Below, in pieces: positions 21,934 to 38,572 of a DNA stretch of 64,000 nucleotides. Each line of letters starts with the position of its first letter. Positions within the stretch are counted from its first letter, which is position 1. Source of the DNA: Candidatus Gastranaerophilales bacterium. Lineage in GTDB: Bacteria > Cyanobacteriota > Vampirovibrionia > Gastranaerophilales > Gastranaerophilaceae. Position numbers and translations under genes: made by a program. The DNA is taken from positions 62,001 through 126,000 of the forward strand of contig CALUWC010000004.1 in the NCBI GenBank assembly GCA_944324395.1, written 5' to 3'. The notes under the pieces are model-generated. The model had not been told where the DNA came from and did no database searches. It worked only from the letters and a program-made list of their open reading frames with translations.

Positions 21934-22035
21934 TATTACATATTGTTACAGAATTTGATATTTTACTAAAGATTTAATATAAAGAACCCGTTATACCATA
22001 ACGTATGAACAAAAACAGACAAGGAGATATGCGTT

Positions 22036-24000
22036 ATGGTAGACGGAGTCGGTAAGAATCCACAGCAACAAACTATTAAATTAAAAGGCAAAGACGGTAA
22101 AAGTATTAATTTAGGCAATTTAAAAGGCTTGCAAAAAACAAAAGGCAACGAAGCCTTATTTAAAATGTATGATAAAGACGGAGATGGAGTTATCAATGAT
22201 AATGAAGCCTTAATCATGCAAAAAAGTTTATATTCTCTATCTAATGGTAACGGAAAAATTTCCCAGCGTGAAATGAAAGCTCTGTTCGGCGATAATAACA
22301 AAGCGGCATTTGAAGCTTTGTCAAAACTATCAGACCAGCAAGCAACCGCAAAAGGTTCAAAATATACAGAAGTAAACGGTAATACGACTACATCTTTTTA
22401 TAACAGCAATTTTGGAATTGAAGGAGCACAAAGAGAAGATGTAACAACAAATCCCGACGGAAGTACAATTACAAAATATCAAGACGGAAGCTCTTTAATT
22501 AAACTAAAAGACGGCTCTTCGCAATTTATTAAAAAAGACGGAACAATTACAAAATATGATAAAGCCGGCAACCATACAGGAACAATAACACCTGACGGTA
22601 CAGAAATAGCATTTCCTGATGCAAATACTGCTATTTGGACAAAAGACGGGCAAAAAATAAAAACCGTACAAAATAATAACGGTAAAGAAGTAACTACAAA
22701 CTTTGGCGATGACGGTCAAGTAACATCAATTACCGTATCAGGCAGAGGCAAAGACGGTGATAAAACATACTCTTCAGAAATGACATTTAACTCAGAAGCA
22801 GATTTTCAAAATAATCGTCCGGCTTCTGAAGTAAGAAACAAAGGACTTCCAACAGAAACAAATATTACATATAAATATGATGCTAATGGAAATGTTCAGG
22901 CAGATTCAGTCAATTCGGCAGGCGAAAAAACAACAACATATAAAAATGCAAACGGAGAAGAAATTAAGCCGGAAGAATTTAATGCACCGCCGAAAGAAGA
23001 ATCTTATTCATATAAAGTTCCAAACGGATACGGTATAACGCAAATTGTTACAGAAAACCTGAAGCAGCAAGGCATTGAAAACCCGACCAAAGAACAGATA
23101 AAAGAAGCAAGAAAGCAGCTTGTTGAAGCAAATGCTGACCAGGTTCATACAATGAAAAATGGTAAATATAAAGGCAATCAATATTTCCTTGCAGGAGCAG
23201 AGATTAAAATGCCTAAGTTCAACTTTGAACAAGATGCACAAAAACTCGATTCAGCTCAAACTGGTGAAATTCCGGAAGGCGAATTAGACGGCGGGGAATT
23301 AGCCGAAGTAACCGTTACTGCTAAAAAACCTTCCCCAGAAACTATTGCTAAAAGAAAAGAACTTCAAGCACAGTTTGGGGATAACTATGAAGTGGGTTAT
23401 GCCAGAGATGGTTCTATTGAAGTTAGAGACAAAAACGGAACTCTGCTTGCAGACCTTACTGAAAAAGCTAACTCCAGCTTACAAACTACAGATATTCCTG
23501 AGGATGGCATAGACGGCGGCGAATTAGCTGAAGTAACCATTACTGCTAAAAAACCTTCTCCAGAAACTATTGCTAAAAGACAAGAACTTCAAGCTATGCT
23601 TGGAGAGAATTATGAAGTGGGTTATACCAGAGATGGTTCTATTGAAGTTAGAGATAAAAACGGAACTCTGCTTGCAGACCTTACTGAAAAAGCTAACTCC
23701 GGCTTACAAACTACAGATATTCCTGAGGATGGCATAGACGGCGGCGAATTAGCTGAAGTAACCATTACTGCTAAAAAACCTTCTCCAGAAACTATTGCTA
23801 AAAGACAAGAACTTCAAGCTATGCTTGGAGAGAATTATGAAGTGGGTTATACCAGAGATGGTTCTATTGAAGTTAGAGATAAAAACGGAGTTCTTTTGAC
23901 CCAAACAGAAATAAATAATTTGATGGATGATCCGAATGAAATAAAACGAAACAATGAAAATCCGGGATTTAATCCTGATGATAACACTTATTTAGCATAA
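22036..24000 (+). CDS. Repeat protein with EF-hand-like loop and 75-residue tandem repeats
   Basis: This 654-residue protein has no signal peptide. Near residue 48 is DKDGDGVINDNEA, a good EF-hand calcium loop, with a weaker second one (SNGNGKISQREM). Residues about 130-310 carry short Gly/Asp beta-repeats (NPDGSTITKYQDGSSLIK, KDGTITKYDKAGNHTG). Residues about 320-395 (GYGITQIVTENLKQQGI ... FLAGAEIKMP) resemble a LysM-like module. The C-terminus has two and two-thirds copies of a 75-residue unit (GELAEVTITAKKPSPETIAK). The pattern suggests a surface or secreted structural protein, but the export route is not visible. AAGGAG precedes the ATG. Confidence 0.7.
   Translation: MVDGVGKNPQQQTIKLKGKDGKSINLGNLKGLQKTKGNEALFKMYDKDGDGVINDNEALIMQKSLYSLSNGNGKISQREMKALFGDNNKAAFEALSKLSDQQATAKGSKYTEVNGNTTTSFYNSNFGIEGAQREDVTTNPDGSTITKYQDGSSLIKLKDGSSQFIKKDGTITKYDKAGNHTGTITPDGTEIAFPDANTAIWTKDGQKIKTVQNNNGKEVTTNFGDDGQVTSITVSGRGKDGDKTYSSEMTFNSEADFQNNRPASEVRNKGLPTETNITYKYDANGNVQADSVNSAGEKTTTYKNANGEEIKPEEFNAPPKEESYSYKVPNGYGITQIVTENLKQQGIENPTKEQIKEARKQLVEANADQVHTMKNGKYKGNQYFLAGAEIKMPKFNFEQDAQKLDSAQTGEIPEGELDGGELAEVTVTAKKPSPETIAKRKELQAQFGDNYEVGYARDGSIEVRDKNGTLLADLTEKANSSLQTTDIPEDGIDGGELAEVTITAKKPSPETIAKRQELQAMLGENYEVGYTRDGSIEVRDKNGTLLADLTEKANSGLQTTDIPEDGIDGGELAEVTITAKKPSPETIAKRQELQAMLGENYEVGYTRDGSIEVRDKNGVLLTQTEINNLMDDPNEIKRNNENPGFNPDDNTYLA
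23287..23890 (+). repeat. 225-bp in-frame tandem repeats
   Basis: Copies begin at 23287, 23512 and 23737, each marked by GACGGCGG; the third stops after about 154 bases. Copies 2 and 3 are almost identical at DNA level while copy 1 has diverged, pointing to recent duplication or gene conversion. The unit is a multiple of three, so copy number can change without breaking the frame. Confidence 0.85.
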
Positions 24001-37612: not shown

Positions 37613-37696
37613 TTGATTATAATATTGAATATATGTAACAATATGTAAAGATTATATATTTTTTATATATTATTTAGCAATTTTATCTTTTACAAA

Positions 37697-37725
37697 TTGT
37701 TTATAATAATATAACGAGGTATAAT
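37697..37725 (+). promoter_or_regulatory. Sigma-70-type promoter before a short ORF and structured RNA
   Basis: TTGTTT (37697-37702) and TATAAT (37720-37725) are 17 bases apart. The predicted start falls at about 37732, directly on the ATG at 37733. The transcript would be leaderless if the ORF is real, or a non-coding RNA if it is not. Confidence 0.6.
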
Positions 37726-37732
37726 TATAATC

Positions 37733-37918
37733 ATGGTCGAGAAAGCTGAACAAAACTTAAAAGTAATTAGAAGAGATGCTCCAGAGACGAGAGAACAAGA
37801 AGTTGTTGATAAAAATCGGCAGACTCGGCAGACAAATCCCATTGTAAGAAAGTTGCTGGACTTCAGTTTATCTGACAAAACCTGCAAATTTTCAGTCAAA
37901 GATTTGTTTAAAAGATAG
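37733..37918 (+). CDS. Possible small protein, 61 aa
   Basis: The ORF starts MVEKAEQNLKVIRRDAPETR and ends LSDKTCKFSVKDLFKR. It is charged and soluble. No Shine-Dalgarno lies at a useful distance (GAGG is 13 bases away), but the promoter predicts a transcript that begins at the ATG. It may instead be the 5' part of a non-coding RNA that continues to 38055. I recognise no family. Confidence 0.4.
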   Translation: MVEKAEQNLKVIRRDAPETREQEVVDKNRQTRQTNPIVRKLLDFSLSDKTCKFSVKDLFKR

Positions 37919-38055
37919 GCTCGTGTAGCACGGTTTTATGAGGATCGACACGCTGGGTAATTCTTGCGGTTTGTGAGGAGCCGAAAATAGTTATACTTCG
38001 TTTCCCCATTCGGGGTAGTGAAGTTTAAAAAGCTGGTAGGTTGAATAATTTTTTT
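37918..38055 (+). ncRNA. Candidate structured RNA element
   Basis: GGCTC (37918-37922) can pair with GAGCC (37978-37982), enclosing a CGTG-TAG-CACG hairpin (37922-37932) and a CACGC/GCG stem. A second hairpin follows: ACTTC (37995-37999), CCCC (38004-38007), loop, GGGG (38012-38015), GAAGT (38020-38024), with a symmetric four-base internal loop. The region is richer in G and C than its surroundings and ends in TTTTTTT (38050-38056 area). I could not match it to tmRNA, RNase P, SRP RNA or a known riboswitch. Confidence 0.45.
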
Positions 38056-38059
38056 AATT

Positions 38060-38572
38060 ATGTACGAAATAAAAAAACAAATTTATCCGGATTTCACTAA
38101 AAATCAAAAGTCTGCACTATGTAACTTTTTACGTGCATTGGTAAAAAAATCAATGGATTTAACAGTTGATGAAATTTTTGAGAGTTTTATCGCTGATGAA
38201 AAATATTATCTTGAATTACATTGTTCAAGATTTGAATTCTTGGCAGATATTATTGATAATGAGGTTTTTAAATCAGATACTATTAAATATTTAAAAGAAT
38301 GCAAAAAATATTACGAATACAAAGAAAAACAACGGCCGATTATTGAAGCAAACAAAGCTTATGAAAAACAAAAGAGAAAATTTTTACAAGAAGTTAAAAT
38401 GTCCAAAGAAAAACCAACAAAAAAACAACTTTATTACTATGACAGACTATGTAAAAAATATGGACTTGAAAAAATAGAATTAACTTCAAAACTTGAAGCC
38501 CGCAATGAAATTGATAAAATAATAACAGAACATCAAGCAGAATATAAAATAGATTTGGAAAGAGAAGAATAA
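38060..38572 (+). CDS. Hypothetical protein, 170 aa, upstream of prmC
   Basis: A helical, charged protein beginning MYEIKKQIYPDFTKNQKSAL. Residues about 95-120 are strongly basic (AYEKQKRKFLQEVKMSKEKP). The C-terminal part KPTKKQLYYYDRLCKKYGLE resembles the short P-T/S-xKQ-x2-Y-x2-L module seen at the ends of some helicases and replication proteins. No ribosome binding site is visible. prmC starts four bases after its stop. Function unknown. Confidence 0.6.
   Translation: MYEIKKQIYPDFTKNQKSALCNFLRALVKKSMDLTVDEIFESFIADEKYYLELHCSRFEFLADIIDNEVFKSDTIKYLKECKKYYEYKEKQRPIIEANKAYEKQKRKFLQEVKMSKEKPTKKQLYYYDRLCKKYGLEKIELTSKLEARNEIDKIITEHQAEYKIDLEREE

What the first reader, a model, noticed from the sequence alone, without database searches (positions are those of the whole stretch)
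37697..38055. Promoter firing directly into a short ORF followed by a structured RNA
TTGTTT-N17-TATAAT places the start on the ATG at 37733. The next 320 bases include a doubtful 61-aa ORF and then a locally GC-richer zone with a GGCTC/GAGCC-closed domain and a symmetric internal-loop hairpin, ending in a T-run before the 170-aa gene and prmC. It fits none of the common RNAs I know and could be a new non-coding RNA or a leader.
Basis: partly seen in the sequence, partly recalled or inferred. Interest (0 to 1): 0.58.

Follow-up and report, generated by a model that had tools for sequence, protein, structure and literature searches.

The report
Small-protein mRNA closed end to end
A group of gut bacteria carries a conserved messenger RNA whose two ends pair with each other, which is predicted to hide the start signal for the small protein it encodes; it is a new example of a rare kind of built-in translation lock.

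Summary
The "doubtful" 61-aa ORF is a conserved small protein found across this family of Candidatus Gastranaerophilales. Directly behind its stop codon lies a conserved RNA domain: a three-way junction, P1 to P3, with clear compensatory changes and no Rfam match. The pairing is present in 53 of 53 loci examined in three genera, with compensatory changes, and persists in three loci that lost P1-P3. Helices inside the coding region also covary. The whole stretch of about 300 nt therefore looks like one structured mRNA, closed end to end. In the predicted full-length fold GAGG is never free; without the 3' strand it is about half free. Most likely it is a translation lock of the kind reported for RNAIII, icaR, hok and aapA mRNAs, here on a hydrophilic, non-toxin-like protein. 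It is a new RNA family built on a known principle. Everything is computed: no transcript, 3' end or translation was measured, and the releasing signal is unknown.

The parts
37634..37648 (+). direct repeat TGTAA-N5-TGTAA, HLR1-like (possible OmpR/RpaB-type site)
   Evidence: exact in 36 of 53 clade loci, one mismatch in 13, two in 4; 0 exact in 879 control stretches. HLR1 examples with TTACA-N5-TTACA seen in PMC6331805.
37678..37707 (+). likely true promoter: CAATTT 37678-37683, 18 bases, TATAAT 37702-37707
   Evidence: Inference from conservation; would place the start at about 37713-37716. No start site was measured.
37713..37728 (+). P0 5' strand (5' UTR, with GAGG 37716-37719)
   Evidence: Pairs with 37987-38002 in the full-length fold; 53 of 53 loci; both-sided changes.
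37733..37918 (+). ORF61, hydrophilic 61-aa protein of unknown function, TAG stop
   Evidence: median dN/dS 0.41. No convincing Pfam, NCBIfam, PADLOC, PHROGs or PDB relative.
37734..37913 (+). helices H1-H6 inside the coding region; H1 includes U and G of the start codon; H5 and H6 are best supported
   Evidence: Outer limits approximate.
37918..37982 (+). three-way-junction domain: P1 37918-37922/37978-37982, P1b 37928-37930/37972-37974, P2 37931-37935/37943-37947, P3 about 37951-37953/37966-37968
   Evidence: cells paired 98% (P1), 72% (P1b counted with 4 pairs), 100% (P2), 90% (P3). P3 is weaker in the window copy itself.
37987..38002 (+). P0 3' strand (anti-SD strand)
   Evidence: As for the 5' strand; kept in L073, L075 and L076, which lost P1-P3.
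37995..38024 (+). P4, a local hairpin that overlaps the P0 3' strand and could compete with it
   Evidence: -15.0 kcal/mol for the local stretch of the window copy, against -18.2 for the P0 duplex; not universal.

Best explanation
It is one structured, protein-coding RNA of about 290-315 nt. Transcription starts upstream of 37713 (inferred). When the 3' part is made, 37987-38002 pairs with 37713-37728 (shown by comparison and prediction), locking GAGG in a 16-18 bp helix while the start codon sits in helix H1 (predicted). Translation of ORF61 is then off in the full-length RNA and becomes possible when the 3' strand is removed or displaced: by 3' trimming, by a trans-acting factor binding P1-P3, or by the competing hairpin P4 (all inferred). 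The stop codon overlaps P1, so a terminating ribosome would melt P1, which may give feedback (inferred).
For: Complementarity in 53 of 53 loci, the own duplex better than all 200 base shuffles in each. Median duplex -22.4 kcal/mol in the clade, against -9.7 for ORF61 of 44 loci of other genera and -9.75 for 62 window ORFs. Covariation: structure 91.7% paired, 155 cells changed on both sides against 56.2 +- 10.3 shuffled and 6 to 46 when slid by 1-3 columns. On a tree, double changes that keep the pair: P0 6 (slid 0-2), P1 12 (0), P2 4 (0), P3 7 (0-1), H1 13 (0-2), H5 6 (0), H6 4 (0-1). Codon-preserving control: ORF helices 91.8% paired against 89.2 +- 0.2, 99 both-sided cells against 52.6 +- 3.5. 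GAGG unpaired probability 0.00 in 53 of 53 full-length folds, median 0.54 without the 3' strand. Precedents for the mechanism are in print (passages).
Against: No RNA or protein was measured. GAGG lies 13 nt from the ATG here, far for an SD. GAGGTATAAT is also conserved in genera that lack the 3' strand, so pairing is not the only reason for its conservation. Duplex energy alone is not decisive: one of 62 window ORFs and one of 44 other-genus loci reach -19.4, better than the window's own -18.2. Three loci (L021, L025, L026) pair only with a bulge. The two outermost P0 pairs are broken in 16 and 27 of 46. The coding region is only weakly more stable than codon-permuted versions (median z -0.67). 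Shuffle controls ignore relatedness, and the tree was made from the same alignment.
Confidence: 0.6

Rival explanations
1. The end-to-end helix mainly protects the mRNA from decay (as reported for the hbs mRNA) rather than regulating translation.
For: P0 begins close to the predicted 5' end. PMC7821165 passages report a 14-nt 5'-3' UTR interaction that protects B. subtilis hbs mRNA from RNase Y.
Against: The helix covers exactly GAGG and the leader, and the start codon is in H1; protection alone does not need P1-P3. None of this excludes it.
Confidence: 0.15
2. A dual-function RNA (RNAIII-like): the structured RNA also acts in trans and the closing helix is its scaffold.
For: Invariant P2 loop UUAUGAG and conserved junction; structure through the coding region.
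Against: No target was sought or found; P1-P3 is degenerate in 3 of 44 genus loci.
Confidence: 0.12
3. A leaderless mRNA from TTGTTT-N17-TATAAT, followed by an unrelated RNA.
For: TATAAT lies 6-8 nt from the ATG in most loci, also in genera without the 3' element: the spacing of a leaderless start.
Against: Changes in TATAAT (TACAAT in several; L014) and upstream of it are matched by the 3' strand. Only 3 GAGGTATAAT-N2-10-ATG sites exist in the genome, one of them inside a coding stretch.
Confidence: 0.07
4. A type I toxin-antitoxin locus like aapA/IsoA or hok/sok.
For: Same end-to-end lock (PMC6733600 passages).
Against: The protein is hydrophilic: GRAVY -1.0, best 19-aa hydropathy 0.32; 46 relatives -1.26 to -0.66. 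The scan shows no minus-strand promoter-like site inside the unit. It is usually one locus per genome and neighbours the 170-aa gene in several other genera.
Confidence: 0.04
5. Terminal inverted repeats of a small mobile element (DNA, not RNA).
For: Inverted complementary ends around 300 bp.
Against: One copy per genome in 35 of 35 strong hits; a G-U pair kept at one fixed place in 40 of 46; internal helices covary.
Confidence: 0.02

Closest known systems
aapA/IsoA toxin mRNAs of Helicobacter pylori (PMC6733600; abstract and passages read)
   Same: A 5'-3' long-distance interaction masks the SD in a stable full-length mRNA; structure also inside the ORF; the paper reports that 3' trimming activates it.
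   Different: There a short toxin with a cis-antisense RNA; here a 61-aa hydrophilic protein, no antisense promoter seen, and a separate three-way-junction domain behind the stop codon.
S. aureus RNAIII/delta-haemolysin (PMC7821165; passages read)
   Same: Small protein coded inside a structured RNA with 5'-3' UTR pairing; deletion of the 3' UTR removes the delay in translation.
   Different: No shared sequence family (no Rfam match); no trans target known here.
icaR mRNA (PMC7821165; passages read)
   Same: A 3' UTR segment pairs with the RBS of its own mRNA and blocks translation.
   Different: icaR uses a short UCCCC motif; here 16-18 bp next to a folded domain, conserved over three genera.
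hok mRNA fold-back (recalled; mentioned in a passage)
   Same: The final mRNA structure needs 3' processing for translation.
   Different: Hok is a membrane toxin with an antisense RNA (recalled).

Membership tests
mRNAs regulated by 5'-3' UTR pairing | 5' UTR and 3' region of one mRNA are complementary over the RBS | tested here: met
   53 of 53 loci, covariation
mRNAs regulated by 5'-3' UTR pairing | pairing lowers translation or changes stability | not testable with these tools
   Only predicted: GAGG free 0.00 against median 0.54
mRNAs regulated by 5'-3' UTR pairing | both strands are on one transcript | not testable with these tools
   No RNA data; inferred from covariation
type I toxin-antitoxin | small hydrophobic membrane toxin | tested here: not met
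   GRAVY -1.0, best 19-aa hydropathy 0.32
type I toxin-antitoxin | antisense RNA over the toxin mRNA | tested here: inconclusive
   Consensus scan found no minus-strand site inside the unit; two lie upstream
any Rfam family | covariance-model match at gathering score | tested here: not met
   0 matches in the window; two weak hits at E 1.2 and 1.3
riboswitch | aptamer upstream of the regulated gene | tested here: not met
   P1-P3 lies behind the ORF and stays with it, not with the downstream gene
riboswitch | binds a ligand | not testable with these tools
   No binding data
dual-function RNA | ORF under purifying selection inside a structured RNA | tested here: met
   Median dN/dS 0.41
dual-function RNA | acts on other RNAs in trans | not tested
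   No target search was made
leaderless sigma-70 promoter | -10 box untranscribed, start on the ATG | tested here: inconclusive
   Geometry fits, but TATAAT covaries with the 3' strand

The most novel reading that the evidence does not exclude
P1-P3 is a sensor placed behind the stop codon: binding of a ligand or protein, or melting of P1 by the terminating ribosome, decides whether the adjacent anti-SD strand closes onto the 5' UTR about 290 nt away or folds into the local hairpin P4. That would be a switch acting from the 3' end of an mRNA on its own start site, with helices in the coding region bringing the ends together.
Probability: 0.13. Interest if true: 0.82.

Novelty: new variant of a known kind. 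Interest (0 to 1): 0.6.

Why it matters
Long-range 5'-3' locks are known from few bacterial mRNAs, several of them toxins. Here the lock is supported by evolution across three genera, on a non-toxin-like protein, with RNA structure and protein sequence selected in the same bases. It also overturns a natural misreading: a perfect TATAAT in front of an ATG that is part of an RNA helix. The search listings for Gastranaerophilales with small RNA and for Melainabacteria with structured-RNA terms showed no report of it; most subscription papers are not in that library.

Tried and rejected
CsrA-type site in the P2 loop: considered; GGA is not kept in L015 and L066. U-run behind P0 as a terminator: rejected; in many loci it is the loop of a small hairpin and in the window's subclade it is replaced by CCCC/GGGG. 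Stop-codon readthrough: a stop follows at once in the ACTTAG group. Fold of the protein: AlphaFold2 gave mean pLDDT 61.8 and pTM 0.27, too poor for a fold search. P1-P3 elsewhere: model R1 found strong hits (E below 1e-10) in 35 of 288 family genomes, all in genera g1, g14 and g44, and 5 weak ones (E 0.007-0.08) taken as chance; 14 of 146 in the class draw. Rows left out: L095 (contig ends inside the RNA) from the clade counts; L073, L075, L076 (P1-P3 degenerate) from A1, A3 and A4; near-identical rows from A1, A3 and A4. G028 has no ORF61 and G031 only an RNA piece at a contig end. The second ORF61 locus of G003 was not read.

Full report
What is in the sequence. ORF61 starts at 37733 and stops at 37918; a manC-like gene lies upstream and prmC downstream, with an uncharacterised 170-aa gene between. 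No Rfam family matches anywhere in the window.

The ORF is real. A relative was found in 51 of 98 related genomes (44 of 46 of the same genus, its own included) and, with a profile, in 136 of 192 genomes of the order, with conserved QTNPI and KFSVKDLF motifs. Median dN/dS is 0.41 over 1024 usable pairs. Named relatives are mostly Candidatus Gastranaerophilales or Melainabacteria MAGs, a few under probably wrong bin names. No convincing domain or structure relative was found, and the predicted fold is poor.

The RNA domain. Behind the TAG stop lies a domain conserved in three genera. RNAalifold found 17 pairs, 9 with compensatory change. Counted on the whole unit, P1 is paired in 98.2% of cells with 4 of 5 pairs changed on both sides, P2 in 100%, P3 in 89.6%. 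P1b closes a three-way junction; its innermost two pairs are near universal, the outer ones are not. A covariance model finds the domain once per genome in 35 of 288 family genomes, only in g1, g14 and g44. For 29 of these 35 the place of ORF61 is known: in 28 the domain directly follows it, and in G120 the two lie on different contigs, ORF61 at a contig end. The other 6 were not compared.

The closing helix. The segment before the ATG, GTAACGAGGTATAATC in typical members, pairs with GATTGTACTTCGTTAC at the end of the domain. In all 53 loci examined (44 of the genus, 1 of g14, 8 of g44) the duplex beat all 200 base shuffles. Compensatory examples: TATAAT to TACAAT matched by a changed partner; L014 with AACGAC and its own partner; GTATAAC/GTTATAC in g44 against GTAAC/GTTAC in the genus; A to G with U to C in L021. 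Three loci that lost P1-P3 keep it. ORF61 of other genera often has a similar GAGG leader but lacks the 3' element, and frequently runs straight into the 170-aa gene; its duplexes resemble background (median -9.7 of 44), except L103 (-19.4) and L136 (-17.2).

Structure inside the coding region. A ribosum-scored alignment fold adds helices H1-H6. They are paired in 91.8% of cells. Against shuffles that keep every amino acid and the codons of each column, H5 and H6 stand out: 95.7% against 91.6 +- 0.4 and 100% against 94.1 +- 0.9. Examples in the alignment: Phe TTC goes with Asp GAC and TTT with Asn AAC; AGC goes with TCT and GGC with TCC. H2 and H3 show no informative change and may be protein conservation only. 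Counting on a tree gives double changes for H1 (13), H5 (6) and H6 (4), against 0-2 when slid. Energies support this only weakly (median z -0.67; 37 of 46 below zero).

How it probably works. In predicted full-length RNA, GAGG is unpaired with probability 0.00 in 53 of 53; cutting off the 3' strand raises this to a median of 0.54. U and G of the start codon pair in H1 in all 46. The simplest reading is translational locking, as reported for aapA (passages), RNAIII and icaR (passages). What opens it is unknown. In the window copy and some relatives (for example L003, L005, L027) a local hairpin P4 could capture the 3' strand, but it is not universal. The hbs precedent keeps RNA protection open as a rival.

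Upstream control. A direct repeat TGTAA-N5-TGTAA sits about 99 bases before the ATG, exact in 36 of 53 clade loci and in 0 of 879 control stretches. It has the spacing of an HLR1 example in PMC6331805. The genome has two OmpR-family regulators whose best NCBIfam match is RpaB, both below its cut-off. Regulation by such a protein is a guess.

Limits. All evidence is comparative or predicted; genomes are mostly MAGs; alignment, structures and tree share the same data; the SD spacing of 13 nt and the leaderless-like spacing of TATAAT in other genera are unexplained.

Noticed in passing
window 21936-21950 (-): A second exact HLR1-like repeat TGTAACAATATGTAA, about 90 bases before the gene starting near 22036.
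   Followed up: no
window 37720-37725; L077-L120: TATAAT at 6-8 nt from the ATG of ORF61 is kept in several genera that lack the closing helix, so it has some other role, perhaps a second, leaderless promoter.
   Followed up: partly
L009 about 1870-1990: In L009 the stretch behind the RNA looks like a cobalamin riboswitch (recalled impression, not run against Rfam), apparently inserted before the 170-aa gene.
   Followed up: no
window 38060-38572: 170-aa protein with no Pfam or NCBIfam match; directly behind ORF61, sometimes with overlapping stop and start, in several other genera.
   Followed up: partly
G186:C49:5311-5926: Two neighbouring copies of ORF61 in one genome.
   Followed up: no
L149, L209, L211, L213: Records titled Muribaculaceae, Brachyspira, Clostridiaceae and Heliobacteriaceae carry ORF61, probably mislabelled bins.
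   Followed up: no
window 37621-37680 (-): Two promoter-like sites on the minus strand pointing away from ORF61; in L019, L022 and L029 the 170-aa gene and prmC are divergent there.
   Followed up: no
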